Shown one piece after another: positions 1 to 34,971 of a DNA stretch of 42,309 nucleotides (position 1 is its first letter; each line of letters opens with the position of its first letter). The position numbers and the translations under genes are program-made. Source of the DNA: Nitrospirota bacterium. GTDB lineage: Bacteria; Nitrospirota; Nitrospiria; Nitrospirales; Nitrospiraceae. The stretch lies in assembly GCA_030645475.1 (NCBI GenBank), contig JAUSMA010000055.1, positions 1 to 42,309 on the forward strand, in the 5' to 3' direction. The notes under the pieces are model-generated. The model searched no databases and was not told where the DNA came from. It saw only the letters and a program-made list of their open reading frames with translations.

Positions 1-25
1 ACTCTGCCATAGGGAGACCGCCTGA

Positions 26-1075
26 ATGGAACATTCCGACCCTACCAAGGTCGCCATTCTGGGAGCAGGTCGCGGCGGCCGCGCGCTGTTGGATCTGCTG
101 CACCAAATCCCGTCGATTGAGATCGTCGGCATTGCCGACCGTGATCCAGCTGCGCCAGGGCTGCAACGCGCACGTACGCTCCACATCCCCGTGACCACCA
201 ATGTGCCGGACTTGATCGACAACCACGGCGTACAGCTCATCATGGATGTCACGGGCAATCCGGAGATGGAAACCTATCTGAAGGCCCATAAACCTCCTAC
301 CACGGATATCCTGAGCGGCTCCGCCTCCCGCCTACTGTGGGAATTGGTCCAACACGAATCCAAGCTCGAAGGCGAACTCCTCCAGGCGGAAAAACTTGCC
401 GGAATCGGCTCATTCGCGGCGGGCATTGCGCATGATATCAACAACCCCCTGCAACTCATTTTAGGCTTGGCGGAAAACCTCGCAGAGGAACGTGACTTGG
501 CAGCTGTCCACGAACAAGCGTTAGACATCATCGAAGCCGTCAAACGGACGAGTGCCATCTGCCGGGACCTCACCCGCTACTCACGACGCGCATCCCCGCA
601 TGAAGACATATCGGTATCGATCAACGCAAAATTGGACGAGGCACTGAAGATCGCACGTTATGCATCGAGCTTTCACGACATCGAGATGATCAAACAATAC
701 CAGCCCGGCGCCGCCGTCAAAGGGAACCCCGATGAGCTCCTCCATGTCTTCGTCAACCTGATCACCAATGCGGTTCATGCGATGGAGCAGGCGGGCGGCA
801 CATTGACGCTCGAGACCAGAGTCCTCGGCGGACAGGTCGATATTCGAATCTCCGATACAGGCAGTGGCATCGCCCCGGAGAAAATCCCCGAGATCTTCGA
901 GCCGTTTTTCACGACGAAGGCTCCGGGTAAAGGCACGGGCCTGGGACTCTATAACGTCAAAACCATCGTCAGCAAAATGCATGGCCATATCACGGTCGAG
1001 AGCAAGGTCGATCAGGGAAGCACCTTTACCTTGACCTTCCCCCATGCCCAACCGGGCGAAGAGGGATGTCTATGA
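26..1075 (+). CDS. Histidine kinase with N-terminal Rossmann-type domain
   Basis: A cytosolic sensor kinase of 349 aa with no membrane segment. Residues 8-90 look like a dinucleotide-binding Rossmann half (GAGRGG at 13-18, then alternating hydrophobic strands and an acidic IADRD after the second strand). Residues 115-185 form the HisKA helix pair with the phospho-accepting His136 in [11 protein letters not shown]. The ATPase follows with N box ([11 protein letters not shown]248), G1 (DTGSG, 277-281), F box (FEPFFTTK) and G2 (GKGTGLGL, 301-308). There is no PAS or receiver domain, so the Rossmann part probably is the sensory input, perhaps for NAD(P)H or another nucleotide (inference). The stop codon overlaps the start of the next kinase by 10 nt, so the two are cotranscribed and probably translationally coupled. 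The start has a GGGAG-type ribosome site about ten bases upstream. The kinase assignment is secure; the ligand is unknown. Confidence 0.9.
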
Positions 1076-3597
1076 TGACTCCCGCAGCCCCTCCAGCGCG
1101 CACCGACTCGAGATGGGGGCTCCAACTCAAACTCATTCTCTCCATGTTGCTGGTGGGCGTGGTTCCCCTCATGGTGGGCCTCGGCCTCGCATTTTGGCAG
1201 GGCTCGCGCGAGATTCAGACGGTCAACGGCGAAAGCTTCAAGGCCCTGGCTGAGGAGTCGGCCAGAAAAATCGATCTCTTGGTATCAGACGAAGTGGCAC
1301 GGACGTCACGGATTGCGGCTGACCCTTTGATTGTCCGTGAGCTGGAGCAACGGCGCGATGCCCTCCTGGACATGACCGACGATGAACGCCGCCGCACGGT
1401 GGGAAAGCGCAAGAAAGGCTGGGAGGACAAAGATCCCATAGCCGTCCAGGCCATTACGGGAAGCAACATAGCCAGCCTCCTTCAGGAATATTTCTCGGGA
1501 GCCAAGAGTGAAGCCGATCAACTGATCCCGCAAGTCGTCCGATCCGCCACCAAGATGTTGTATGTCACCGACATCGAGGGCAACCTGGTAGCCGCGTTGA
1601 CCACAATCCCTCCCTTTGCCAATAAAGATACGGTCTGGTGGAACGGCACCTTCCATCACGGGGTCGGGCAACTCTTCATTGAAGATGTGCACTTCGATGA
1701 GCGAGCCCAGACCTATGTCATCACCATCTCGCTTCCCATCATGGACCGCATCCGGTATGGGACGATTGGGGTGATCCATCGCGTGATCGACGCCAAGGAC
1801 TTTTTCTCGCCCTCCATCGCGCCGATTCGCTTCGGCAAAACCGGACATGTGATGCTGATCGACCATCGCGGCATCGTCATCAGCTGTCCCATTCTGCCGA
1901 CCGGCGTCTCGCTCTCCGACGTACAGCTCATTCCCCTCGTCACGCCCTTTCACCCAGGTTGGGTCAGTGCTCCAAGCGATGGCCACGGCGGACAATCACG
2001 CTCGATTATTGGATTCGCCCCGGTGCCGGAAACCAGCCGTGCCACCAACGGCGACCTCCTCAACGGATCCTGGCATACCTTCGTGTGGCAAGCCTCCGAC
2101 GAACTCTTTGCTCCGATTCGTCACTTGCTCACCTGGATGGCCGTCTTCAGTCTCGTCTCCGTCGGATTGATGGCATCGCTCGGCTACCTGGCTGCCAATC
2201 GAATCGTCACACCCGTGCGCCGATTACAGGCCGCCGCACAATTGATCGGACGCGGTGAGCTGCTGGAGCCCATCGACATTCGGACCGGCGATGAAATTCA
2301 GGATCTGGCCGACGAGTTCAATCGCATGCATCGTCAATTGGAAACGGCCTTTGCAGGCCTGACCGATCAAGTAGCGATGAAGACACAACAAGTGGAGTCC
2401 TTGATTCACTCGACAGACCAGATCCTGGATGCCGTCCCGACCCCGATCATCATGGTCAATCAAAACGAACAGGTGCAGTACATCAATCGGGTCGGACGGG
2501 ATTCCTTTCAGTCCATACTGGACTCGACCCAATCGATCCCGTTATTCGAGATCCTCCCCGTCGATGCCGCAGTACGCGAACACCTGCGAACAGAACTCAG
2601 ACGTGTGCGAAACGGAGAGGATGTCGCCGCCCTTGCATCAGGAGCGGAAGATGCCGTGGTCGTCAACCGCGCCCGTGACCCCTTGGCCCCCGCGATGGGC
2701 GCGGCAGATCCCAGCAGCCGGCAGGACATTCAGATTGGATCACGGCGTTATCACTATCAGTGGTTCCGCATGGCAGGGGGCAACCAGGGAGAGGATCGGA
2801 TCGGCCTGGTCTTCAGGGACACGACAGACGACAGTCGTCTTCAAGACCAGCTCATCCAAGCCGAGAAATCTGGCAGTCTCGGAACCCTTACCGCTGGAAT
2901 CGGGCATGAGTTGAATAATCCGCTCTTCGGCATTCTCGGGCTGGGAGAGGCCATCGAAGACGAAACCAGCCTCGAACGTATCAGATCCTATGCCCGCGAT
3001 ATCGTCCAGCATGGCCGTCGAATGGCTGCGATTATTCGAGACTTCACCGGCGTCACGACCCGCGAAACATCGGACCAGCGGCAACCGGTCCACCTCGAAC
3101 GAGAGCTCGATCAGGCCATCGCGACACTCACTGGCAGCATGGACGTGGCAGGACTCACGATCGAGAAAACCTACGCAGGAGACACCACGGTGCTCGCCCT
3201 CCCCGACCAACTCCGACAAGCCTTCACGAATCTATTGATGAATGCCATCCAGGCGATGAAGGGCCGTGGCTCCTTGCGCCTCTCGACGGTCCTGGCCAAT
3301 ACATCCGTCGTGACCACGATTGTCGATTCAGGCCCCGGCATTCCGAAACAACATCTGACGAAGATTTTCGATCCGTTCTTTACGACCAAGGGACAAGGCG
3401 ACGGATCCGGACTTGGCCTGACCGTCGCGCGCCGGATCATCAAGAAATTTGGAGGGGACATCAGGATTGAGAGCCAGGAGGGAAACGGCACCTCGTGCAT
3501 CGTCACCCTCCCGGTGATCCCGCTTTCGCCATCCCCACAGGAGGCTTCATGCACCGAATCCATGTCTCGCTCTGCGCCGCAACCCTCAGCGTCTTAA
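1066..3597 (+). CDS. Membrane sensor histidine kinase, Cache-HAMP-PAS-HisKA-HATPase
   Basis: A transmembrane sensor kinase of 843 aa. The first membrane helix is about residues 20-44. A periplasmic Cache-like sensor domain spans about 45-345 (it contains YVTDIEGN and HVMLIDHRG strand pairs typical of dCache folds). The second helix is about 353-378, followed by HAMP (377-430), a PAS domain (about 445-585), and HisKA with phospho-accepting His614 in GIGHELNNPL. The catalytic domain has N box NLLMNAIQAM, DSGPG, FDPFFTTK and GSGLGL. It overlaps the upstream kinase by 10 nt and the downstream heme protein gene by 49 nt. The dedicated regulator is not next to it, so it may phosphorylate a regulator outside the window or work with the upstream cytosolic kinase. 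The periplasmic domain could read a small molecule, or the state of the adjacent DUF3365 heme protein (inference). Confidence 0.93.
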   Translation: MSMMTPAAPPARTDSRWGLQLKLILSMLLVGVVPLMVGLGLAFWQGSREIQTVNGESFKALAEESARKIDLLVSDEVARTSRIAADPLIVRELEQRRDALLDMTDDERRRTVGKRKKGWEDKDPIAVQAITGSNIASLLQEYFSGAKSEADQLIPQVVRSATKMLYVTDIEGNLVAALTTIPPFANKDTVWWNGTFHHGVGQLFIEDVHFDERAQTYVITISLPIMDRIRYGTIGVIHRVIDAKDFFSPSIAPIRFGKTGHVMLIDHRGIVISCPILPTGVSLSDVQLIPLVTPFHPGWVSAPSDGHGGQSRSIIGFAPVPETSRATNGDLLNGSWHTFVWQASDELFAPIRHLLTWMAVFSLVSVGLMASLGYLAANRIVTPVRRLQAAAQLIGRGELLEPIDIRTGDEIQDLADEFNRMHRQLETAFAGLTDQVAMKTQQVESLIHSTDQILDAVPTPIIMVNQNEQVQYINRVGRDSFQSILDSTQSIPLFEILPVDAAVREHLRTELRRVRNGEDVAALASGAEDAVVVNRARDPLAPAMGAADPSSRQDIQIGSRRYHYQWFRMAGGNQGEDRIGLVFRDTTDDSRLQDQLIQAEKSGSLGTLTAGIGHELNNPLFGILGLGEAIEDETSLERIRSYARDIVQHGRRMAAIIRDFTGVTTRETSDQRQPVHLERELDQAIATLTGSMDVAGLTIEKTYAGDTTVLALPDQLRQAFTNLLMNAIQAMKGRGSLRLSTVLANTSVVTTIVDSGPGIPKQHLTKIFDPFFTTKGQGDGSGLGLTVARRIIKKFGGDIRIESQEGNGTSCIVTLPVIPLSPSPQEASCTESMSRSAPQPSAS

Positions 3598-4139
3598 TCG
3601 CTGGGTGGTGGGACCCGTCTGCCTTCTCTGCCAAAGAACGCCCGGGATCGCCCGGCATTCCAGTGGAGAAAGTGGCGGCTTATCTCTACGCCGTCATCAA
3701 GGCCGATCGCACGGTCTACACGACGGAGATCGTCAATCGGCTCCAGGAAAAAGGCGTCACCACGGCGTCTGAACATTGGGAACAGGAGAACGCGCTCATG
3801 TTGCCGGCCCAGTTCCTCCAGCATGCCGGCAAGCTGGCAGCCGAGAGCGGAAGCGGAATCCGGTATCGACTGATCAGTCTCTGGCCTATTTACCGCCGCA
3901 ATGCGCCGGCCAGCGACCTGGAGCGAAGCGCGCTGGAGTCTCTCAGGAAGAATCCCGATCAGCCAGTCACGGGAATCGTCACCAGCGGGCGCAAACAGTT
4001 TTTTCAGGCCATCTATCCCGACGTCGCCGTGTCACCGGCCTGTATCAACTGCCACAACAGCCATCGCCTCAGTACGAAACGGGACTTTAAGCTCAACGAT
4101 GTCATGGGCGGGATTGCGATCACGATTCCGCTGGAATAA
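3549..4139 (+). CDS. Exported DUF3365 (Tll0287-like) heme protein
   Basis: A 196-aa protein with an N-terminal export signal (hydrophobic stretch about residues 6-20, then SAFSAKE). It belongs to the DUF3365/Tll0287-like family, which is related to periplasmic heme-binding sensor domains. A single CxxCH motif (CINCH, 165-169) near the C-terminus predicts covalent c-type heme. It is followed by the family-typical end DVMGGIAITIPLE. The ATG at 3549 was chosen because AGGAGG lies 4 nt upstream at 3539-3544 and the signal peptide begins there. The reading frame stays open further upstream, but that part lies inside the kinase gene. The gene overlaps the end of the sensor kinase by 49 nt, so it belongs to the same transcript. 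A role as periplasmic redox or gas-binding partner of the kinase is inference. A paralogue lies at 31350-32021. Confidence 0.85.
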   Translation: MHRIHVSLCAATLSVLIAGWWDPSAFSAKERPGSPGIPVEKVAAYLYAVIKADRTVYTTEIVNRLQEKGVTTASEHWEQENALMLPAQFLQHAGKLAAESGSGIRYRLISLWPIYRRNAPASDLERSALESLRKNPDQPVTGIVTSGRKQFFQAIYPDVAVSPACINCHNSHRLSTKRDFKLNDVMGGIAITIPLE

Positions 4140-4175: not shown

Positions 4176-5273
4176 TTACGACGGTGCGGTGGGATTCGGG
4201 GATACAACGGGAACCGGAGCGTGATAGTCCTCACGGTAGATGGCAATCACCGTCATCAGAATGCTCATGAGGATCGGCCCCACGAACAGCCCGATCAGAC
4301 CATAGAGCGCGAGACCCCCGAGAATGCTAAAGACGAGAAACAGCACCGGCATCTGGACGTCCTGTCCGATGAGCCAGGGCCTCAGAAACTGATCGACGGT
4401 CGACACCACGCCAACCCCCCAGATCAGCATCACCAGCGCCTTCCCCATCGATCCGACCGTGAGAAAATACATCACGACAGGACCCCATACGAAGGCCGTG
4501 CCACCGAACGGTAGCGGCGCGAGGAGGATCGTGAGCGCGGTGAGCACCACCGCAAAAGGAGCGCCCAGCACGGCATAGGCTGCGCCGGCCAACAGGCCCT
4601 GAGCGATGGCAGTCAGGAGTACGCCCTTCACGACGGCGCGAATCGTGATATCCATTCGCGCAAAAATCTTCTGCTTCTGCGCCTCCCCGAGCGGAACGAG
4701 CTCGTAGAGAAACTGGAGCCAGCGGCGACCATCCTTGTACAGAAACCAGAGCGTAAACAGAATGATGAGAAAATCACTGAGCAGAATAAAGGCGTTTTTG
4801 AGCAGGTCGCTTAATTGATCGATAAAAAACTTGGAGACCACTTGCGCACTCGACCGAACCAACGCCTCTAACGCGTCAGGCTGCAGAACATAGCGTCCGA
4901 TCAGACTGTGGAGGGTGCCTCCGATCACCGGCAGCTTCGAGAGCTGTTCCGGCAAACGCTGGATCCCACCGGCTTCGATCCAGGTCTGCACCGCCAGCTC
5001 TGCGCCGACCGCTTCTCGCACCAGCATCACCGCCATCAGCAGCACCGGCACGACCACCATGGCCAAGACGCCCAGGGTCAGGCACCAGGCTGACAGGGCA
5101 TCGCGCCCGCCCAAGCGAGAGGTCAACCGCACGTGAAGTGGAAACGTCATGTGCGCGAGAATCACCGCCCACAACACGGGAAGGAGAAACGGCTGAAACA
5201 TCAGAGCAATCTGATAGAGGAGCAGTGAGAAAAATGCGAAAAATACGGCGGTGAAGAGCTGCGGCTTTGTCAT
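4176..5273 (-). CDS. AI-2E family transporter (PerM/YdiK type permease)
   Basis: An integral membrane protein of 365 aa in the AI-2E/PerM family. Known members export autoinducer-2 or act as Na+(Li+)/H+ antiporters; the substrate here cannot be told from sequence. Hydrophobic segments occur near residues 8-45, 62-85, 160-180, 215-245, 250-275, 280-300 and 310-345. The family landmarks are a soluble stretch between the second and third segments, LFTLWFLYKDGRR in the middle, and a C-terminal GLIGLFVGPILMS. Length is normal for the family. It is on the opposite strand to the DUF3365 gene, with stop codons 36 nt apart, and stands 33 nt downstream of bactofilin on the same strand. The start ATG has no strong ribosome site. 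Confidence 0.88.
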   Translation of the reverse strand: MTKPQLFTAVFFAFFSLLLYQIALMFQPFLLPVLWAVILAHMTFPLHVRLTSRLGGRDALSAWCLTLGVLAMVVVPVLLMAVMLVREAVGAELAVQTWIEAGGIQRLPEQLSKLPVIGGTLHSLIGRYVLQPDALEALVRSSAQVVSKFFIDQLSDLLKNAFILLSDFLIILFTLWFLYKDGRRWLQFLYELVPLGEAQKQKIFARMDITIRAVVKGVLLTAIAQGLLAGAAYAVLGAPFAVVLTALTILLAPLPFGGTAFVWGPVVMYFLTVGSMGKALVMLIWGVGVVSTVDQFLRPWLIGQDVQMPVLFLVFSILGGLALYGLIGLFVGPILMSILMTVIAIYREDYHAPVPVVSPNPTAPS

Positions 5274-5306
5274 GAGTTGGCTACGAACAGGAGAGAACCG
5301 GCAGAC

Positions 5307-5762
5307 CTATCGGAGCACTTCGCCTCGAGAATCTTTATCGAGCACCACAACCTGCTTGGCCCGGTGTGCGGAGAGATCCCGGACGCTGCCCGGCAACTTC
5401 GGTTGCTCCTCAGGCCAGGAGGTCACTCCCATATCCGTGATCCCTTGCATCTTGGCGCCTTCTTCCATGATGAACAACGGCGTATGGACTTCTCCAATGA
5501 GTGTCGCCGTCTTCAGCAACTGCACGCGCTCCATGGCCGTCACCTTGGCCTTGATGCGACCGCTGCTGATCACCGTGCCGGCCGTAATCATGCCCTGCAC
5601 GAGTCCGTCCTCGCCGATGATGACTTGCCCCTTGGTCTGAATTACGCCGTCGAGACGGCCATCGATCCGCACCGTCCCATCGACATGGATCTCGCCCTTC
5701 AGCAAGACCCCTTTGGCTAACAGAGTAATGTTGTCATCTCCGGCAAAGCCACTACTTTTCAT
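5307..5762 (-). CDS. Bactofilin (polymer-forming cytoskeletal protein)
   Basis: A 151-aa bactofilin (DUF583). The core at about residues 12-110 is a run of short beta-helix turns with regularly spaced Gly and hydrophobic positions (GEIHVDGTVRIDGRLDG, then VIIGEDGLVQG, then GRIKAKV). This is the right-handed beta-helix known to polymerise into filaments without nucleotide. Short polar tails flank it, as usual. Bactofilins commonly scaffold cell-wall enzymes. Here the next gene upstream on the same strand encodes a class A penicillin-binding protein (start to stop gap 61 nt), so a shared role in localised peptidoglycan synthesis is plausible (inference). GGGGGA upstream of the ATG serves as ribosome site. 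Confidence 0.9.
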   Translation of the reverse strand: MKSSGFAGDDNITLLAKGVLLKGEIHVDGTVRIDGRLDGVIQTKGQVIIGEDGLVQGMITAGTVISSGRIKAKVTAMERVQLLKTATLIGEVHTPLFIMEEGAKMQGITDMGVTSWPEEQPKLPGSVRDLSAHRAKQVVVLDKDSRGEVLR

Positions 5763-5823
5763 ACGTCATTCCCCCTTCACACTCCATCATTCACGCAGCT
5801 TACACCATTCGTCTCAGCGCGGC

Positions 5824-8121
5824 CTAGGAGAATCCAAAAGTATGCCGGAGCCGTTCCCAGATTCCTCCTCCATGCACTTCACAATAGACGCTGGGCTCCG
5901 TGCCCTCGATGAACACCTCCGGCGCCTGTTCAGGGCACTGAGACGTGGCCAACTGCCCGGTCTTCGGATCGATGGTGCGGGCCACGACACCGGAGGGCAT
6001 CACGAAGGCAGGAGCATTCGGTGGGAACACCCGCTGTGCAAGCTCCATCCAGATCGGCAACGCCGCCTGCGATCCCGTGAGACGCAGCGGCCGTTCATCG
6101 TCGAATCCCACCCAGACCCCGATCACCACGTCGGACGTGTAGCCCACGAACCAGGCGTCGCGATAGCCGTCGGTGGTGCCGGTTTTCCCAGCCACCGCAC
6201 CTTGAAATCCGATCGCCCGGGCCTTACTCGCCGTGCCCCGCTGCATCACGCCTTCGAGGAGAGACGTCAACACATAGGCCCCCTGAGGCGATGTTGCCTG
6301 TTGCCGATTCGGCACGGCATTCCAGAGCATATCGCCCTGCCGATCCCTCGTCGTACGAACCGCCGTCGGCTTCACCGCGATCCCTCCGTTGGCGACCGCC
6401 CCGTAGGCCGCCGCAATCTCCAGCAACGACACCGACGAACTGCCCAACGCCACCGACGACAGATCTTCGCCGATGGCGCTCTTCACGCCCAGGCGATGCA
6501 ACAGCTGCACGATCGGCTTCGTCCCCACGGCCTTGGCCACACGCACGGCCGGAACATTGAACGACTGTTCCAGCGCATGCCGCATGGTGACATGGCCATG
6601 AAACTGTTTATCGTAGTTCTGCGGTGACCATGGACCGGTCTCCGAGTCAAACGTCACCGGCTCGTCCGCCAACAAACTCGCCGCCGTCAGACGGCCTGCC
6701 TCGCCTTCACGAGCTGCCTCCAGCGCCGCAAGATAGACGAAGGGTTTGAAAAGCGATCCCGGTTGCCGCCGTGACTGCACGGCACGATTGAATTGACTCC
6801 GCCGGTAATCTCGCCCTCCGACCAGCGCTAGGACTGACCCGTTCTTCGGATCGAGCACGACCACCGCCCCCTGCACCGGCTCCAGCCCACTCGTGAGATG
6901 GGGATGCGCCGCCTCTAACTTCGCCAAGCCCTTCTCCAAAGACTCACTGGCTGCCTGTTGGACCATGGGATCAAGCGTGCTGTCGATCCGCAAACCCTCC
7001 GGCAACGGAACGACACCGGCCTCTTCCACTTCCCGCAGCACCGCGTCGACAAAATAGGGCGCATCGGTCAACAGGTCTTCTGACGGAGTCACACGTACCG
7101 GTTCATTCACGGCGCGCGTCCAGACCTCTTCCGACAGGACCCCGGTCTCCCTTAACCGGCGCAAGACAACATCGCGCCGCTGCTTGGCCAGCTCGGGATG
7201 TTTCGTCGGGGCATAACTATTCGGCCCCTTGATCAAGCCGGCAATCATGGCAATCTCTTCGACCGTCAATTCCCCCAGCGTCTTGCCGAAATAGCGATGC
7301 GCGGCCTCGCCCACCCCGTAGATCGACAGGAATCCCGCCTGCCCGAGGTAAATTTCGTTCAAGTAACTTTCGAGGATCTCCTGTTTCGAATACTTCGCTT
7401 CGAGAATCAGGGCTGCCAAGGCTTCTTTGAATTTTCGTCCCATCGTTCGCTGCGGCGAGTAGAACAGATTTTTCGCCAGTTGCTGCGTGATGGTACTGCC
7501 GCCCTGCACCACACCACCCTTGGTGACATTGGTCCAGAGCGCCCGCCCGACGGCCACCGGATCGATGCCGAAATGGGAATAGAACCGGCCATCTTCGATG
7601 GTGAGAACCGTGGCGATGACGTGAGGAGGAATTTGCGCCAACGGAATCCATTCGCGCACCTGACGGGACGCACCTCGCACACCGCTCAAGAGTTCAGGCT
7701 CCAGAAAGATGGGAAAGAGCGGAGCACCATCGACCGGAGACCGGACATCCGTCACTCGCCCCTGCTCTAACGTCAACGTCACCTTCGTCGCACCGACATG
7801 GCCCTCCGGCTGCGGATGGAGATAAACCGTCAGCGCCTCATCGGTCAGCTGATAGTCACCGGGAAACTGCACCTGCACGGTCACTCGCCGATAGCCTAAC
7901 CGTTGTAGCCGCTCAAGCAGATGGCTGTGCGCCAGCGAGAGATCTGGGTGCAGCAGAAAGGGTCCACTGTACAGACGCAGCGGCGGATGCTCGTCGCTCT
8001 TCGGCAGGGCAAGACTCATCGAGAGGATCGCACCATAGATCGCGAGTCCGGCTAGGCCGCTTGCGATCAGCGCCAGCAGCGCCCCCACTCCCCGTTTTAT
8101 CCATGGATGCACAATCGCCAT
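5824..8121 (-). CDS. Class A penicillin-binding protein (bifunctional transglycosylase/transpeptidase)
   Basis: A peptidoglycan synthase of 765 aa. It has one N-terminal membrane anchor (about residues 12-36) and then a small domain at 60-130 resembling the UB2H regulatory domain of PBP1b. The GT51 glycosyltransferase follows at about 150-325, with catalytic Glu176 in TIEDGRFYSHFG and motifs GGSTITQQLAKN and ESYLNEIYLGQ. The transpeptidase domain spans about 415-690, with nucleophile Ser456 in GSLFK, SFN at 520-522, and KTGTT starting at 646. All catalytic motifs are intact, so it should polymerise lipid II and crosslink stem peptides on the outer face of the inner membrane. UB2H-like content suggests an mrcB-type enzyme, possibly controlled by an outer-membrane lipoprotein activator. 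It lies upstream of bactofilin in the same orientation. Confidence 0.93.
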   Translation of the reverse strand: MAIVHPWIKRGVGALLALIASGLAGLAIYGAILSMSLALPKSDEHPPLRLYSGPFLLHPDLSLAHSHLLERLQRLGYRRVTVQVQFPGDYQLTDEALTVYLHPQPEGHVGATKVTLTLEQGRVTDVRSPVDGAPLFPIFLEPELLSGVRGASRQVREWIPLAQIPPHVIATVLTIEDGRFYSHFGIDPVAVGRALWTNVTKGGVVQGGSTITQQLAKNLFYSPQRTMGRKFKEALAALILEAKYSKQEILESYLNEIYLGQAGFLSIYGVGEAAHRYFGKTLGELTVEEIAMIAGLIKGPNSYAPTKHPELAKQRRDVVLRRLRETGVLSEEVWTRAVNEPVRVTPSEDLLTDAPYFVDAVLREVEEAGVVPLPEGLRIDSTLDPMVQQAASESLEKGLAKLEAAHPHLTSGLEPVQGAVVVLDPKNGSVLALVGGRDYRRSQFNRAVQSRRQPGSLFKPFVYLAALEAAREGEAGRLTAASLLADEPVTFDSETGPWSPQNYDKQFHGHVTMRHALEQSFNVPAVRVAKAVGTKPIVQLLHRLGVKSAIGEDLSSVALGSSSVSLLEIAAAYGAVANGGIAVKPTAVRTTRDRQGDMLWNAVPNRQQATSPQGAYVLTSLLEGVMQRGTASKARAIGFQGAVAGKTGTTDGYRDAWFVGYTSDVVIGVWVGFDDERPLRLTGSQAALPIWMELAQRVFPPNAPAFVMPSGVVARTIDPKTGQLATSQCPEQAPEVFIEGTEPSVYCEVHGGGIWERLRHTFGFS

Positions 8122-9262: not shown

Positions 9263-9331
9263 ACGGGTCTCTCCAGGGGGAAAGCCCCACGAGATGCCTG
9301 AGCGGCACAATCCAACTCTGGCCGGAGGAAC

Positions 9332-9694
9332 ATGGCTACAATTCTAATCGTTGACGATGACGCATCCATTCGAACATTCTTGTGCCGCATCCTGGAAGAA
9401 GACGGCCATGAGGTCCGCGAAGCGGCCGATGGGCAGATCGGCCTCAGGTTGTATCGCCAAGACCCGACCGATCTGGTGATTACCGACATCCTTATGCCGG
9501 AACGGGATGGGATGGAGGTCACACTCGCGCTGACGCGTGAATTCATGGAGGCCAATGTCATTGCCATGAGCGGTGCGACAGATGCCCGGAGTCTTCTGGA
9601 CATCGCCAAACTTTTCGGCGCACAGCACGTCATCCAAAAACCCTTCACGATTGAAGAGATCCGACGTCTCGTGCGCACCACATTGGAACAGTAG
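9332..9694 (+). CDS. Receiver-only response regulator (CheY-like)
   Basis: A 120-aa stand-alone REC domain. The acidic pair sits in VDDDAS (residues 7-9). The phospho-accepting Asp is in VITDILMPERDG (about residue 52), the conserved Ser follows in IAMSGA, and the conserved Lys is in VIQKPFTIEEI (about 105). There is no output domain, so it probably works as a phosphorelay carrier or by protein contact, as CheY and Spo0F do. GGAGG precedes the ATG by six bases. No kinase gene is adjacent. The hybrid kinase at 15.7-18.4 kb and the kinases at 0-3.6 kb are possible partners (inference). Confidence 0.92.
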   Translation: MATILIVDDDASIRTFLCRILEEDGHEVREAADGQIGLRLYRQDPTDLVITDILMPERDGMEVTLALTREFMEANVIAMSGATDARSLLDIAKLFGAQHVIQKPFTIEEIRRLVRTTLEQ

Positions 9695-9710
9695 CGGAGG
9701 CCCCGGCTGC

Positions 9711-15063: not shown

Positions 15064-15678
15064 TTATCCTCCGCAACGAGTGCAGACTCCTGACGTAATC
15101 TTGGCATTGAGCTTTTCTTCCAGATAGTCCTCAAGTCGTAGCCAGAGCCCGCCGCTCGTCCGAACTCGTTTGCACTTGGCGCAAAGGCAGAGGGTCCCTC
15201 GAAGCGTTTTCAGTTCTTGCACAGTCCGGCCCAACTCCTTCGTCTTGGCATCAAGTTCGCGCTCGCGCTCTTCCCGGTTATCGTATTCCTCCTTCAAGGT
15301 CATCGCCATCGAGACACGCGCCACCAACTCTGCTGGAATCACCGGTTTTCTGATGTAATCCGTCGCACCGGCCGTGTACGCAGCAGTCAGATCAGACGCA
15401 TCTGTTTGTGCCGTCACCACAATCACAGGCAGATGTTCGAACCGCTCTTCCGACCTGATGCGCCGGCAGGCCTCCAGCCCATCCATATCGGGCATCAAGA
15501 GATCCATCAGCACGACGTCGACTCGAGCGGAGGAACGGCCATCGGCGCCGATACCCAAATACTCCAATGCCTTCGCGGCCGACTCCGCAAACAACAACGA
15601 TCGATAGCCTGCAGCCTGTAGCGTGGCCGCCAGCATGTCGCGCTGCTCTTCAAAATCATCGACGATCAGGATACTCAT
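15064..15678 (-). CDS. Response regulator with C-terminal CxxC zinc-binding motif
   Basis: A 204-aa regulator. The REC domain covers residues 1-125, with acidic pocket D7/D8, phospho-accepting Asp59 (VLMDLLMPDMDG), VVTAQ, and Lys in IRKPV at about 118. A coiled coil follows (about 130-165). The tail has CAKCKRVR, then WLRLEDYLEEKL, then CTRCGG. This four-Cys tail is a recurrent output segment in receiver and PAS proteins and probably holds a zinc ion. No DNA-binding or enzymatic output is seen. The ATG at 15678 was chosen because GGAGA precedes it and the REC fold begins there. The frame extends 30 codons upstream into the kinase gene without support. It lies 25 nt downstream of the hybrid kinase and is its likely partner. 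Confidence 0.9.
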   Translation of the reverse strand: MSILIVDDFEEQRDMLAATLQAAGYRSLLFAESAAKALEYLGIGADGRSSARVDVVLMDLLMPDMDGLEACRRIRSEERFEHLPVIVVTAQTDASDLTAAYTAGATDYIRKPVIPAELVARVSMAMTLKEEYDNREERERELDAKTKELGRTVQELKTLRGTLCLCAKCKRVRTSGGLWLRLEDYLEEKLNAKITSGVCTRCGG

Positions 15679-15703
15679 CGCGGCGTCTCCTTGTGGTTCC
15701 TTA

Positions 15704-18382
15704 TTACAAGTGGAATATGCCGTCACCCGCTTCCGAACAGGCCCCTTCAGCCTCCCGGAGCGCCGCAACCAACCGCTGCACTTCCACGGTCACTCGCTCG
15801 AAGTCATGATCGAGGGCAGCCGCCTCAAGGGCGCTGCCGATCAATCCTATCGTGTCTAACCCGTACGAACCCGCAAGCCCCTTAATGCGATGGCCGATTG
15901 TTCGAATCGTATCGGCATTCTGCGCGACGATCGCGGATTGGAGGATCGTCACATCCTGCTGCCGATTACGCACGAATTTTGGACGAAGCGCCTGCAGGCT
16001 CTGCTCGAACGTATCCTCTTTTCCGGCTCGCGGGCCCTCACTCGGACCGGATACGGTCTCTTTCCTCGGCGCAACCATGTATCGCTGGATCACATCGAGA
16101 ATCGTCGCGACCTTGACGGGTTTCGTCACAAAGTCGGTACAACCGGCCAGCAAACTGTTCCGTTGCGCCTCGCCATCGGCATTCGCGGTCAACGCCACGA
16201 TCGGAACCCGGGGCCGGCCCTGCGTCTCCTCCCAAGCCCGAATGGCTCGCGTCGCCGCATACCCATCCATGCCGGGCATTTGGAGGTCCATGAACACGAG
16301 ATCGTATCCGCCCGTCTGATATCGTTCGACAACGCCGGTGCCGCTGGCGGCGCGATCCATCCTGTGGGGAGTCCCGCGAAGATACAGCGCCATCAAATCT
16401 TGAGACTCCACGCAATCCTCAGCGAGGAGGATCTTCAAGCCTCTCTCACCCGGAACCTGACCGCCTGCTGTCGCCATCTGGACTGGCAGGGCCTCTCGCT
16501 CGGACAGGACTCGCTGCGGCTGATTCTCCGTCACCACCTCAAACCGAACAATTACCGTAAAGGTGCTGCCCAGCGCAGGCTTGCTCTCGACCAGAATACG
16601 TCCTCCCATCAGGCCAACGAGTTGCTGACAGATGGCAAGCCCCAAACCGACTCCACCATAGGACCGGCTTGCGCGGGAATCGACTTGCAAAAACCGATCA
16701 AAGATCTTTTCGTGCTGCTCGGGAGGAATGCCGATTCCGGTATCTGCCACCACAAATCGCACGGTGCCTCCGTCCGGCGAATCAGGCACCGGCCCGACTC
16801 GGACCTCCACGCCCCCCTCTGCCGTAAATTTGACGGCATTCCCGATGAGGTTGAGCAAGACTTGCTGGAGACGCAGGGCGTCTCCCAGAACGAGTGCCGG
16901 AAGACCTGGATCGGTGGACAACGAAAGAGCCAGCCCCTTCGCCTGGGCTTTCTTGGTCAAGAGCCCTACGGTATCCTCGACCAGTTCTCGAAGCGCAAAC
17001 GGCTCTTGCACCAACTCCAGCGTGCCGGAATCCACTTTGGCCGCCTGCAGAAGATCTTCAATCATGCGGAGCAAGCCGGAACCGGCCTTCTCGCACCGCT
17101 TCAAGAGATCGGCCTGATCGGACGAGAGCGGAGTCCGGAGCAGAAAATCCGTCAGGCCGATGATCGCGTTCAACGGCGTCCGCATCTCATGGCTCATATT
17201 CGCGAGAAAATCACTCTTGGCTTGACTGGCTTCTTCAGCCGCTAACCGGGCTTTCACAAGCGCGACCTCGATCTCTTTGCTTTCAGTAATGTCCTCCGAG
17301 ATACCTAGCAGATATTGTGGCGTGCCGAGGGAGTCACAGATCGGAATTTTCTTCGTATGGAGCAGGCGCAGGCCTTTGGCCCTGCTCTGAATGGTCTCTT
17401 CGGGAATATTGACCAGCGTACCGCCTGACAACGCTTCACGATCTTTCGCCGTAAAAAAGTCGGCCTCTTCTTTGGAGAAGAAATCGTAGTCATTCTTGCC
17501 CAGAAGGTCCGATCGGGAATAACCGAGCAATTCTTCGCCGGCCTTATTCAATCGCACAAAACGAAGATCCTTGGCGTCCTTGACGAACACCATATTCGGC
17601 AAATGCTCGAACATGGATTCGATGAACGCCGTGGTCTGCCGAAGCGCATCCTCCCCTCGTTTTCTCTCGCTAATGTCGCGAATGAACGACGAGAAGAACA
17701 TCTGCTCGCCGAGGCGCAGAGGGATCACGGTGAGCTCAACAGGAAACTCCTCGCCGCTTTTTCGGAGGGCCGTAATTTCAATCCGCCGTCTGAGAATCGC
17801 TTCCTGTCCCGTCTTGAGATATCGCTGCATCCCTGCGGCATGGGCTGCGCGATATTGCACCGGGATAATCAGTTCCGCCAGAGTCACACCCACAGCTTCC
17901 GCCCGCGTAAACCCAAACGCCACTTCCGCTTGCGGGTTCCACTCGACGACCAGGCCGCGTTCGTCCATCGTGACGACGGCATCCAAGGCGCCTTCTACGA
18001 TCGCGTGGATCCGCGACTCCGCTTCGAGCCGGGCACGCAACGATCGGCTATCGAGATACAGCAGACCCGCCATCAACCAGAGAGTCCCCACACCGACCGC
18101 CCGATTAAAGACACCCGCAGTCGGATCTCCTGCCTTCACCAATAAGACCGCGCCACTCAAGACCAAGACCGACCAGAGCAGCGTGGAGAGAAGCAGCACC
18201 CGCGAGGGATAGAACCGTGACACCACGAATGCCAGAAAGAAGTAGAAAACCCAGGGAGCAAAACCAAGCGGGACGTAGAGATCGAGGAGAAAGGTGCCGA
18301 TGGTGGTGACCCAGACAAATGCCGGAACTACAGGCTTCAGCCTGACAAACCACGGATGAGTCATCAGTTCAAGGTTCGGCAT
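15704..18382 (-). CDS. Hybrid sensor histidine kinase (TM-PAS-PAS-HisKA-HATPase-REC-Hpt)
   Basis: An 892-aa membrane-bound phosphorelay protein. About four hydrophobic segments fill residues 18-110 as a compact membrane sensor. Two PAS domains follow (about 125-245 and 250-370). HisKA has phospho-accepting His398 in MSHEMRTPLN. The HATPase has NLIGNAVKFT at 511-520, DTGIG at 547-551 and GGVGLGLAI. The C-terminal REC domain has Asp699 (FMDLQMPGMDG), and the final Hpt domain has His831 in TIGHRIKGLAGSYG. It therefore carries a complete internal His-Asp-His relay that would finish on the response regulator encoded 25 nt downstream. Start ATG 18382 is used; a second Met six codons later is an alternative. 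Confidence 0.93.
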   Translation of the reverse strand: MPNLELMTHPWFVRLKPVVPAFVWVTTIGTFLLDLYVPLGFAPWVFYFFLAFVVSRFYPSRVLLLSTLLWSVLVLSGAVLLVKAGDPTAGVFNRAVGVGTLWLMAGLLYLDSRSLRARLEAESRIHAIVEGALDAVVTMDERGLVVEWNPQAEVAFGFTRAEAVGVTLAELIIPVQYRAAHAAGMQRYLKTGQEAILRRRIEITALRKSGEEFPVELTVIPLRLGEQMFFSSFIRDISERKRGEDALRQTTAFIESMFEHLPNMVFVKDAKDLRFVRLNKAGEELLGYSRSDLLGKNDYDFFSKEEADFFTAKDREALSGGTLVNIPEETIQSRAKGLRLLHTKKIPICDSLGTPQYLLGISEDITESKEIEVALVKARLAAEEASQAKSDFLANMSHEMRTPLNAIIGLTDFLLRTPLSSDQADLLKRCEKAGSGLLRMIEDLLQAAKVDSGTLELVQEPFALRELVEDTVGLLTKKAQAKGLALSLSTDPGLPALVLGDALRLQQVLLNLIGNAVKFTAEGGVEVRVGPVPDSPDGGTVRFVVADTGIGIPPEQHEKIFDRFLQVDSRASRSYGGVGLGLAICQQLVGLMGGRILVESKPALGSTFTVIVRFEVVTENQPQRVLSEREALPVQMATAGGQVPGERGLKILLAEDCVESQDLMALYLRGTPHRMDRAASGTGVVERYQTGGYDLVFMDLQMPGMDGYAATRAIRAWEETQGRPRVPIVALTANADGEAQRNSLLAGCTDFVTKPVKVATILDVIQRYMVAPRKETVSGPSEGPRAGKEDTFEQSLQALRPKFVRNRQQDVTILQSAIVAQNADTIRTIGHRIKGLAGSYGLDTIGLIGSALEAAALDHDFERVTVEVQRLVAALREAEGACSEAGDGIFHL

Positions 18383-31349: not shown

Positions 31350-32021
31350 TTAGCGCACCCAGGGTGGAGGAACCGCCGAATTGGGAGTCAGCCGCTCGAT
31401 TGGGGCCATCTGCCGCTTGGACGGTTCCGGTCCCAACGGGAGTCCTTCCGGCGACGCATCGCGCTTGAGCCGAACGATGACACCGCCCATCACATCCCAC
31501 CGGCGAAAGTTCCGACGCGGCGCGCTGGGATGATTGTTGTGGCAATCCACACAGGACTGGACGAACGCGAGATCCGCCGAGATGGCTTTGAATTGGTCGC
31601 CGTCCACGAACGTGAGCACACCCACATCGCGATTTTTCTCCAACTGCACCAGCGCATCGCTTTCGGCGAGGGTTTTGGGGCGATTCTCAGGATTGAGAGG
31701 CGTGAGGCCGATCAACCCCATCTCGAAACCGGTCACTTGATCGGCCGCAGCTTTCACGAATTGAGCCGGAAGCGGGATGTAATGCGCATCTTTTTGCCAA
31801 TCTTCCTTCGGCGCCACCCCACTGTCCCGGAGATGCTCAACCACTTCCAGGACATAGGCCGTACGAAATGCCTTGACGATTTCCAGGATGTAGCGGGCCG
31901 TCTGATCGAACGTGGGCTCTGCCGCCTTGGCCGTCCAGGCGAAAAATGAAAGCAGGACGGAGAACATGAGGATGAGGACCAGGCGACCGTAGTGCACGCG
32001 AACTCCCTTCATCAGCGTCAT
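31350..32021 (-). CDS. Exported DUF3365 (Tll0287-like) heme protein, paralogue
   Basis: A 223-aa periplasmic protein and a paralogue of the one at 3549-4139. It has a signal peptide (about residues 1-34, ending AKA-AE). The family helix is TFDQTARYILEIVKAFRTAY, then HYIPLPAQFVKAAADQV. The single c-type heme site is CVDCH at 157-161, followed by DVMGGVIVRL. A Pro-rich tail (about 190-223) is not shared with the other copy. Several Met codons could start it; the first is used, and the fourth residue is an alternative. No kinase is adjacent to this copy, unlike the first. It may be a stand-alone sensor or electron-transfer partner (inference). Confidence 0.85.
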   Translation of the reverse strand: MTLMKGVRVHYGRLVLILMFSVLLSFFAWTAKAAEPTFDQTARYILEIVKAFRTAYVLEVVEHLRDSGVAPKEDWQKDAHYIPLPAQFVKAAADQVTGFEMGLIGLTPLNPENRPKTLAESDALVQLEKNRDVGVLTFVDGDQFKAISADLAFVQSCVDCHNNHPSAPRRNFRRWDVMGGVIVRLKRDASPEGLPLGPEPSKRQMAPIERLTPNSAVPPPWVR

Positions 32022-32980: not shown

Positions 32981-34194
32981 CTAAAACTGGAGAGTGGCAT
33001 TGATCGCCACAAGGAGCTGATTGTCGTTGTGTCCGTCGTTGTACGGATTCCGCCCACCCGTAAACCAGTCGTACCGGATTTCAGGACGAATGGTGATATT
33101 CGAATGAGCGTAGTAGTTCACCCCGCCGGTGAGGGAATAGAAACTGCCGGCGAACGGGGCGAGATTGGGGTTTCCCCGGTCTGGGGAGCCCCCGACTCTC
33201 GTCCCGGCTTCATCCCGGAACCACTCGAACCGGAGACCGGCCTTTACTTTTTGATGGAGCCGATAATAGAGGTACTGATCGATGCCATACCAACGCGCAG
33301 TGCCTCCACCGACTTTTCCATCTTCCTGATAGGCATAATGATGGTGAAATACATATTCCAAATCGTCGGTGGGATGGACGGAAACGATGGCGCTATAACG
33401 AGTCCGCTGCTCGGTCTTCGCTGCAACAGCCGTCGGCTCTTCGCCCGTAATCATGGCCAACGAGGCCGACAAAAACTTATCACTCGTGGTGTAGCTGGCC
33501 TTCATGACATAGGCAGGCTTGTCGCTTCGACGATCGAACGAGTCCCAGCCGTTCACGAGGCCCCCCTGCAGCGTGAACTGCGGGGTCACATTCCACGTGG
33601 CCAGGCCGCCCAATGGGTGAACGGACCGGCAAATTGATACGAGTACGATTTCGAATAAAAGAAATTCGCGGGCGCCGGCACCCCTTCGTACCCGACAATC
33701 GTATAGAAATGTCCCGCCTTCACCGAAAATGTCTGATTCCCCGCCTCGGCATACATCTGCGGAAGCGCGACTCCATGCTGTTCGTGATTCCACTTGGGGG
33801 AACCGGACTGATTCCGTTCGATCCCGTTGCTCTGAGTCAGGAAGTAATCATACCCATACATCGCGTCGACCCGGCCCCCCACATCGATGCCGCTCGTGCC
33901 GCGCAACGTCTTCTCCACCACGAGATACAACTGGTTCAGTTGCGGCCTATCGCGATCCACCGCGTTGTAGGGCCCGTTGAAATGCGACGTCGGGCTCGAA
34001 CCGTTGAACGTATAACCTCCATCGACCCAGCCCCGCACCGAGATCGGCCAACTCTGAGGAAAGAGCCGCTGAATCGCCGCATCCCCTTGAGCCGATGAAG
34101 CCGGCGCAACAGCCTCCTCCGCCCAAACCTGGCCGACGCTACTGATCGCCCAGAGCAACCCACAGATTCCCAGTCCCAATCTCCACACCTTCAT
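32981..34194 (-). pseudogene. Outer-membrane beta-barrel porin (BBP2-like), one frameshift
   Basis: Two frames join into one porin of about 404 aa. The first (start ATG 34194, AAGGAGG eight bases upstream) gives a signal peptide (GLGICGLLWAISSVGQVWAE), then PISVRGWVDGGYTFN, GGRVDAMYGYDYF, FSVKAGHFYTIVGYEGVPAP, and SYQFAGPFTHW. The match continues in the second frame from GGLATWNVTPQFTLQGG through many amphipathic strands to the C-terminal aromatic end LVAINATLQF, as expected for a barrel protein. One missing base at about 33610-33614 explains the switch. BBP2-family porins are probable outer-membrane channels. Everything outside the single indel looks intact, so a sequencing error or recent mutation is likely. 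Confidence 0.82.
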
Positions 34195-34971
34195 CGACCA
34201 CGCCTCCTTAATTGTGAAACCTCTCGAACATGTACCCAGAACAGGGGCGCTCTCATCAACTCGCGTTCCTGCCCCTGAGTCGAACGTCAGGCCTGCATCA
34301 GCAAGAATAGTACCGAAGGCCGCGGGGATCGAAAATGTCTGGCATCCTGTAATTTCATTCAACTCTGCCGCGCTCTCACTCGGTCTAGCATCACTCCACT
34401 GTGACCAAAAGTAGATACCTGTGTGACCGCTCGTGGCATGAATGAAACAAGAGAGACTCTCACGCGGCAGGGGCAACCACGCAATTCCACACAGAGGCTT
34501 GGCATCAAGCTGGTAAAAGAGACGCTGTGGCAGGCACGGGCATGATAGAAAAATTGGACACGGGAGACCGTTCTGACCTCTGCAGCTTTTCAGCCTTCTC
34601 AACCTTCTATGGCTTCTCGGCTTTTTCCGGTTTATGAATTTCCGGCTTCTGAACTTCTGCTGCACCGTCTGTGCAGTAAGACAAGACATCGTCAAAAACG
34701 TTTCCTGAAAATTGAAGAGAATCCTGGCAGACTCCTCATACCGGGACGAAGGGATAATCGTTCCCGACACCGCAATCTGGCACCAGGCAGAAAAGTGTCC
34801 GGGTTTTCCAACATCCTAGAGCCCACAGCCTCGCTATGGCAGGCTTCACCACTAAGCCATATTGACCAGACTTTGTCCGGTCTCATCATGCACACTGTGA
34901 TGGTCAACCGATGGTGGTGCACCGCACCACCCGAGACGACAATGCGTCACACTCTTAACAGGGAGGTTCCC
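34195..34971. other. 777-bp gene-free region
   Basis: No credible gene. Long open frames on both strands through here lack ribosome sites and have biased, non-protein-like composition. The region contains the promoter area of the porin, a CT-rich degenerate repeat (34579-34660) and the leader of the CsbD-like gene. Confidence 0.5.
34579..34660. repeat. CT-rich degenerate short repeat
   Basis: Irregular 8-10 bp units of the type CAGCTTTT, CAGCCTTCT, CAACCTTCT, GGCTTCTC, GGCTTTTTC recur, giving a strongly CT-biased strand. On the minus strand it reads as a Lys/Glu/Ala/Pro-rich phrase broken by a stop codon, so it could be a gene relic, but a slippage-generated intergenic repeat is simpler. Confidence 0.5.

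What the first reader, a model, noticed from the sequence alone, without database searches (positions are those of the whole stretch)
26..4139. Two kinases and a periplasmic heme protein in one overlapping operon
All three genes overlap. The DUF3365 protein has a CxxCH heme site and signal peptide, and the second kinase has a periplasmic Cache domain. A heme-based redox or gas sensor feeding two kinases, one membrane and one cytosolic, is plausible.
Basis: partly seen in the sequence, partly recalled or inferred. Interest (0 to 1): 0.6.

Follow-up and report, generated by a model that had tools for sequence, protein, structure and literature searches.

The report
Two-kinase heme and NAD-like sensing operon
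In Nitrospira-group bacteria, four genes kept together appear to form one signalling unit in which a heme protein outside the cell membrane and a probable NAD(H)-binding domain inside the cell feed two kinases that share one response regulator, a combination I found no description of.

Summary
Window base 1 is a contig end. An exact 139-nt overlap joins it to contig C15, which carries a 144-aa single-domain response regulator 97 nt upstream. The order RR – RossHK – dCacheHK – heme protein is conserved in 68 of 70 testable Nitrospirota loci.

The heme protein belongs to the sCache_heme (DUF3365/Tll0287) family. Across 67 intact orthologues it never has the axial Cys of the redox-type members. 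Its divergence tracks the kinase's periplasmic dCache domain (partial correlation 0.53–0.60), not the kinase domain encoded between them and not a periplasmic control. In relatives, the operon's Rossmann domain is inserted into a copy of the operon's receiver (10 loci).

Best reading: a two-input system, with periplasmic heme (NO or redox) read by the membrane kinase and cytosolic NAD(H) read by the soluble kinase, converging on one CheY-like regulator. Ligands, phosphotransfer and output are inferred. It is a new variant of a known kind; the Rossmann-in-receiver form may be new.

The parts
26..1075 (+). RossHK: soluble HisKA/HATPase histidine kinase (349 aa) with N-terminal Rossmann domain
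   Evidence: found in 179/295 Nitrospirota genomes by its N-terminal domain, paralogues included
26..355 (+). Rossmann (NAD-type) input domain, residues 1-110; GAGRGG at 62-79, Asp38 at 137-139
   Evidence: Pfam GFO_IDH_MocA/DapB_N weak hits; profile hits acetaldehyde dehydrogenases and Rex; GxGxxG and D38 81/81; beta-alpha-beta model, one helix 99-154 running into the DHp helix
410..1048 (+). HisKA (H136 at 431-433) and HATPase_c of RossHK
   Evidence: H136 in 80/81
1066..3597 (+). dCacheHK: membrane kinase, dCache-HAMP-(PAS-like)-HisKA-HATPase, 843 aa
1204..2124 (+). periplasmic dCache domain (residues 47-353); sole invariant periplasmic Cys C274 at 1885-1887
   Evidence: dCache_1 best stretch residues 165-275; C274 77/77
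2878..3516 (+). HisKA (H614 at 2905-2907) and HATPase_c of dCacheHK
3549..4139 (+). stand-alone sCache_heme (DUF3365/Tll0287) protein, 196 aa, signal-peptide-like N-terminus
   Evidence: PF11845; model matches Tll0287 5b82 and GSU0935 3b42; AGGAGG just before ATG 3549
4041..4055 (+). CINCH heme-c attachment motif, followed by NxH (CxxCHNxH invariant)
1..139 (+). exact overlap with the end of contig C15, which carries the operon's first gene: single-domain response regulator, C15:249671-250105 with stop (locus L067:6672-7106)

Best explanation
It is a four-gene, two-input two-component system. (1) The periplasmic c-heme Cache protein partners with the periplasmic dCache domain of the membrane kinase and reports heme state to it: NO binding or heme redox/ligation, NO slightly favoured. 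(2) The soluble kinase reads the cytosolic NAD(H) pool through an N-terminal Rossmann domain whose last helix runs straight into the dimerisation/phosphoacceptor helix. (3) Both kinases phosphorylate or dephosphorylate the same co-encoded CheY-like response regulator, which has no DNA-binding domain and must act by protein contact or phosphorelay. Shown by sequence: domain composition, catalytic and phosphoacceptor motifs, conserved order, GxGxxG plus Asp, absence of an axial Cys, co-divergence of heme protein with dCache, and the Rossmann/receiver fusions. Inferred: NAD(H) and NO as ligands, direct protein contacts, phosphotransfer to the shared regulator, and the output.
For: Order RR-RossHK-dCacheHK-HEME in 68/70 testable loci and in 19 of 20 relatives' loci of an earlier set. 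RR gene recovered in this genome by the 139-nt overlap. Receiver intact (PF00072; DD, D71, T99, K121 conserved). Rossmann GAGxGG and Asp38 in 81/81, with profile matches to NAD dehydrogenases and to Rex at E 1e-3. Single continuous helix 99-154 from Rossmann to DHp. Heme protein matches Tll0287 (E 5e-5); no Cys outside CxxCH in the mature domain of 67/67 intact orthologues, the state of the NO-binding rather than the redox-type member in PMC12889525. Heme-dCache partial correlation 0.53-0.60, against 0.11-0.15 for the kinase domain encoded between them and -0.12 for periplasmic PBP. RossKin-RR 0.37 and RossKin-dC_kin 0.32. Rossmann domain inserted into the operon-type receiver in 10 loci.
Against: No biochemistry. 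The heme gene is absent in two deep lineages (L056, L151) and decayed in G204 while RR and both kinases remain. dC_kin-RR partial correlation is about 0. Stand-alone sCache_heme proteins were proposed to be redox proteins, not NO sensors, and removing the axial Cys from the P. putida protein did not make it bind NO tightly. Rossmann Pfam hits of the intact protein are below curated cut-off, and Asp after beta-2 suggests but does not prove NAD(H).
Confidence: 0.55

Rival explanations
1. The heme protein is a redox/electron-transfer protein (as proposed for stand-alone Tll0287-type members) that is merely co-regulated with, or a reporter of periplasmic redox potential to, the dCache kinase; NO is not the signal.
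For: Stand-alone members were assigned redox roles, and the C59A mutant of the P. putida protein still bound NO weakly. GSU0582/GSU0935, with His/water or His/Met ligation, were interpreted as redox-linked sensors. An invariant single periplasmic Cys in the kinase would suit redox chemistry.
Against: Heme divergence tracks specifically the dCache domain, arguing for partnership rather than mere co-regulation. The axial Cys defining the redox-type members is absent in 67/67.
Confidence: 0.4
2. One heme input controls both kinases, for example through RossHK/dCacheHK heterodimers or a shared complex.
For: The two kinase cores co-diverge (RossKin-dC_kin partial 0.32) and the genes overlap.
Against: RossHK has its own conserved input domain that recurs in unrelated outputs: HisKA_3 kinase with NarL-type regulator, GAF-GGDEF, receiver. 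No heme-RossHK co-divergence.
Confidence: 0.15
3. The Rossmann domain binds a different nucleotide or cofactor (NADP(H), CoA, SAM) or only dimerises the kinase.
For: One member hits CoA_binding in Pfam and five of twelve domain-only sequences do so weakly; Rossmann families are promiscuous.
Against: GAGxGG plus Asp immediately after beta-2, 81/81; best profile matches are NAD-dependent enzymes and Rex.
Confidence: 0.25

Closest known systems
sCache_heme family (DUF3365/Tll0287, PF11845); Tll0287 5B82, GSU0582/GSU0935, P. putida and P. azotoformans proteins (PMC12889525)
   Same: Fold, CxxCH heme-c site, extracytoplasmic export signal
   Different: Stand-alone like the redox-type Tll0287 and P. 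putida proteins but lacking their axial Cys; encoded in overlap with a dCache kinase and co-diverging with its sensor domain
LuxP-LuxQ (periplasmic sensor protein on a Cache-type kinase; own knowledge, structures appear)
   Same: Separate periplasmic sensor protein paired with a membrane kinase whose periplasmic part is of Cache/PAS type
   Different: Sensor is a heme-c Cache protein, not a sugar-binding-type protein; a second, soluble kinase is added
Rex redox-sensing repressor (NADH sensor)
   Same: GxGxxG Rossmann domain with Asp after beta-2; profile match 5zz5 E 1e-3
   Different: No winged-helix DNA-binding domain; output is a histidine kinase
AtoS/ZraS-type HisKA kinases and many-to-one systems such as NarX/NarQ
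   Same: Kinase cores score best to AtoS and ZraS (below equivalog cut-offs); two kinases per regulator have precedent (own knowledge)
   Different: Regulator has no sigma-54 or DNA-binding output; inputs are different

Membership tests
sCache_heme (PF11845) | PF11845 profile above cut-off | tested here: met
   67.6 vs 24.1 bits
sCache_heme (PF11845) | CxxCH c-heme motif | tested here: met
   CINCH; CxxCHNxH in 68/68 aligned
sCache_heme (PF11845) | Cache fold with heme insertion | tested here: met
   Model pLDDT 85; top match 5b82
sCache_heme redox-type subgroup (Tll0287, P. putida protein) | axial Cys on the heme iron | tested here: not met
   No Cys outside CxxCH in 67/67 intact orthologues
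sCache_heme cluster 2 (NO sensors) | fused to a signalling module | tested here: not met
   Stand-alone 196 aa; the signalling module is the neighbouring gene
sCache_heme cluster 2 (NO sensors) | slow NO dissociation | not testable with these tools
   needs purified heme protein
HisKA sensor histidine kinases (both kinases) | HisKA with H-box and HATPase_c with N/G boxes | tested here: met
dCache-HAMP membrane kinases | dCache_1 between two TM segments, then HAMP | tested here: met
two-component response regulator | receiver with DD, phospho-Asp, Thr, Lys | tested here: met
   PF00072 in L067:6672-7103, residues D23 D24 D71 T99 K121 conserved
two-component response regulator | phosphotransfer from the two kinases | not testable with these tools
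   biochemistry needed
Rex / NAD(H) sensors | GxGxxG and acidic residue after beta-2 | tested here: met
   81/81
Rex | DNA-binding winged helix | tested here: not met
   N-terminal Rossmann directly followed by HisKA
NAD(H) sensors | binds NAD(H) | not testable with these tools
   binding assay needed

The most novel reading that the evidence does not exclude
The operon integrates periplasmic NO/heme state with the cytosolic NADH/NAD+ ratio. Its Rossmann domain is a previously unnamed, portable NAD(H) input module that can gate a receiver directly: in relatives it is inserted at the alpha-4 output face of the same type of response regulator, giving a kinase-independent, NAD-controlled receiver.
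Probability: 0.3. Interest if true: 0.82.

Novelty: new variant of a known kind. Interest (0 to 1): 0.62.

Why it matters
[quoted passage not shown] The one biochemical study found assigns such proteins to redox roles; here the protein lacks the axial Cys and co-diverges with a kinase sensor domain, so the question 'redox protein or gas sensor?' becomes directly testable. It also points to a widespread Nitrospirota input domain of NAD type in kinases, diguanylate cyclases and receivers. No description was found in the literature searched, although that library omits most subscription journals. Nitrospira bacteria oxidise nitrite (some also ammonia) and live with NO and tight NADH budgets, so this could be how they weigh both.

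Tried and rejected
Trans-axial ligation of the heme by the kinase's invariant periplasmic Cys274: weakened, because C274 is kept in lineages without the heme gene. Locating the axial residue by sequence alignment to 5B82: single-sequence and profile searches found no match; a cysteine count replaced it. A conserved Met or His as distal ligand: none invariant except H169 and H172. Foldseek of the whole RossHK model: hits dominated by the kinase core, so the Rossmann call rests on the profile search and motifs. Literature searches for Rossmann-type histidine kinases or Rossmann-inserted receivers: nothing relevant. An ammonia-oxidiser context for this genome: amoA absent, while two sister genomes ring. 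Complex prediction of heme protein with dCache was not available; distance-matrix partial correlation was used instead.

Full report
CHECK. The three ORFs are real and overlap as reported: RossHK 26-1075, dCacheHK 1066-3597, heme protein 3549-4139. The heme gene starts at ATG 3549 behind a perfect AGGAGG, not at the GTG 3495. Pfam confirms two HisKA/HATPase kinases, dCache_1 and HAMP in the second, and PF11845 in the third. Only the second kinase has transmembrane segments.

The window is the whole of contig C55. Contig C15 ends with an exact 139-nt overlap with window 1-139. On C15, 97 nt upstream of the RossHK start, lies a 144-aa single-domain response regulator. The operon is therefore RR-RossHK-dCacheHK-HEME. 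The first kinase is not a bare cytosolic kinase. Its first 110 residues form a Rossmann domain, with weak Pfam GFO_IDH_MocA and DapB_N hits; the profile matches acetaldehyde dehydrogenases and the NADH sensor Rex. GAGxGG and Asp38 are conserved in 81 sequences (Ala14 in 80). The AlphaFold model, from a shallow alignment with pLDDT 77, shows alternating strands and helices and then one helix from residue 99 to 154 running into the phosphoacceptor helix.

CONSERVATION. The Rossmann domain is found in 179 of 295 Nitrospirota genomes, paralogues included. In 80 named loci, among them N. defluvii (L110) and N. moscoviensis (L117), 68 of the 70 loci in which all four positions can be read have all four genes in order and on one strand; in an earlier set of 20 relatives, partly overlapping, 19 have all four. 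The scan of 84,980 species genomes kept the best 80 of 179 matches. All were labelled as Nitrospira or Nitrospirota except one 'Nitrospinota' MAG and one 'Nitrosospira' bin. Exceptions are informative. Two deep lineages (L056, L151) and G204 have RR and both kinases but no intact heme gene. Genomes G218, G060 and G292 keep a dCacheHK relative, and in G218 and G292 an adjacent RR relative, without RossHK or the heme gene. RR is the most conserved part (mean pairwise identity 0.86, against 0.66-0.69 for the others), as expected for a protein with several partners.

HEME PROTEIN. The model matches Tll0287 (5b82) and GSU0935 (3b42). A 2026 preprint (PMC12889525) names the family sCache_heme. It finds that a stand-alone member with axial Cys behaves as a redox protein, while a member fused to transmembrane helices and HAMP and lacking that Cys holds NO tightly. 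Here all 67 intact orthologues lack any Cys outside CxxCH in the mature domain, and no Met or His other than H169 and H172 is invariant. This operon's protein is thus stand-alone in architecture but of the non-Cys type in chemistry. Caution: removing the axial Cys from the redox-type protein did not by itself create tight NO binding.

PARTNERSHIPS. Distance matrices for eight parts over 58 loci gave the highest partial correlation to heme protein-dCache, 0.60 (bootstrap 0.39-0.71). With periplasmic PBP as a control over 52 loci it was 0.53 (0.36-0.67), with heme-PBP at -0.12. The dCache-encoding segment is separated from the heme gene by the HAMP/PAS and kinase segments, whose partial correlations with the heme protein are only 0.11-0.20, so shared recombination history of neighbours does not explain it. 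RossKin-RR (0.37) and RossKin-dC_kin (0.32) are next among the cross-protein operon pairs apart from RossKin-HAMP/PAS (0.37). dC_kin-RR is about 0, so the shared-regulator step for dCacheHK rests on gene order, here and in the RR-dCacheHK pairs of G218 and G292. Some correlation remains with control genes (heme-AI2E 0.31), so these values are supportive, not proof of contact.

ROSSMANN MODULE ELSEWHERE. In this genome a second Rossmann kinase (HisKA_3) is paired with a NarL-type regulator (L076). Other Nitrospirota carry Rossmann-GAF-GGDEF and Rossmann-GAF-PAS-kinase-receiver-GGDEF proteins. In 10 loci (mostly order-level family f2, one f1 genus, one named MAG) the Rossmann domain, with its exit helix, sits INSIDE a receiver whose two halves match the operon's RR: N-part up to beta-4 (LTG), insertion at alpha-4, then beta-5/alpha-5 with the KP motif and the same C-terminus (the end of L175 is masked). 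RR and Rossmann domain have thus been fused, which is Rosetta-stone evidence that they act together.

MECHANISM. Shown by sequence: parts, motifs, order, absence of axial Cys, co-divergence, fusions. Inferred: NAD(H) binding, heme ligand, contacts, phosphotransfer, output. Most likely the membrane kinase reads heme state through the heme protein, the soluble kinase reads NAD(H), and both set the phosphorylation of one CheY-like regulator that acts by protein contact. I give this combined reading 0.55, with the NO versus redox choice close to even.

NOVELTY. Each component family is known. The combination, the NAD-type kinase input domain and the Rossmann-inserted receiver were not found in the papers searched, which is a limited library. 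I file it as a new variant of two-component signalling.

Noticed in passing
L155:5536-6408, L165:3438-4310 (= L176:5938-6810), L166:3269-4102, L170:4765-5559, L171:4845-5669, L172:4943-5737, L173:4645-5439, L174:5024-5878, L175:3100-3882, L177:6236-7030: Receiver domains of the operon-RR type with a complete GxGxxG Rossmann domain inserted between beta-4 and beta-5; acidic pair, phospho-Asp, Thr and (where not masked) Lys retained. Those in L165 and L167 have no kinase gene evident nearby.
   Followed up: partly
L076:3373-4482 and 2715-3386 (own genome, contig C69): Second Rossmann-domain kinase, HisKA_3 type, with a NarL/LuxR-type regulator, near genes that read like lpxC, nrdR and glyA; same arrangement in relatives (L158, L162).
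   Followed up: partly
L161:2658-4028, L168:3618-5030, L160:4021-7449: Same Rossmann domain at the N-terminus of GAF-GGDEF diguanylate cyclases and of a large GAF-PAS-kinase-receiver-GGDEF protein.
   Followed up: partly
window 31350-32021 (-): Second stand-alone sCache_heme protein (CVDCHNNH) with an extra proline-rich C-terminal tail, 34-35% identical to the operon's; the genome has 12 such domains.
   Followed up: partly
window 1885-1887: Single Cys (C274, SCPILPTG) in the periplasmic dCache domain, invariant in 77/77 sequences including heme-less lineages; possible redox, thiol or metal role.
   Followed up: partly
window 1-139 and G000:C15 end: Contigs C15 and C55 join by an exact 139-nt overlap inside the RossHK gene: an assembly break, not a gene end.
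   Followed up: yes
window 15064-18382 (-): Hybrid PAS-kinase-receiver-Hpt-like protein (892 aa) overlapped by a receiver gene with a CxxC...CxxC C-terminus.
   Followed up: no
window about 9320-9706 (+): Short single-domain CheY-like regulator (MATILIVDDDASIR...) shadowed by longer ORFs on the other strand.
   Followed up: no
window 32981-34770 (-): Two overlapping frames (33586-34770, 32981-33793) that read like one outer-membrane porin-type protein: possible frameshift.
   Followed up: no
window 4176-8121 (-): AI-2E-family transporter, bactofilin and penicillin-binding protein genes convergent to the operon are also conserved beside it in most relatives (AI2E in 60 of 68 testable loci).
   Followed up: partly
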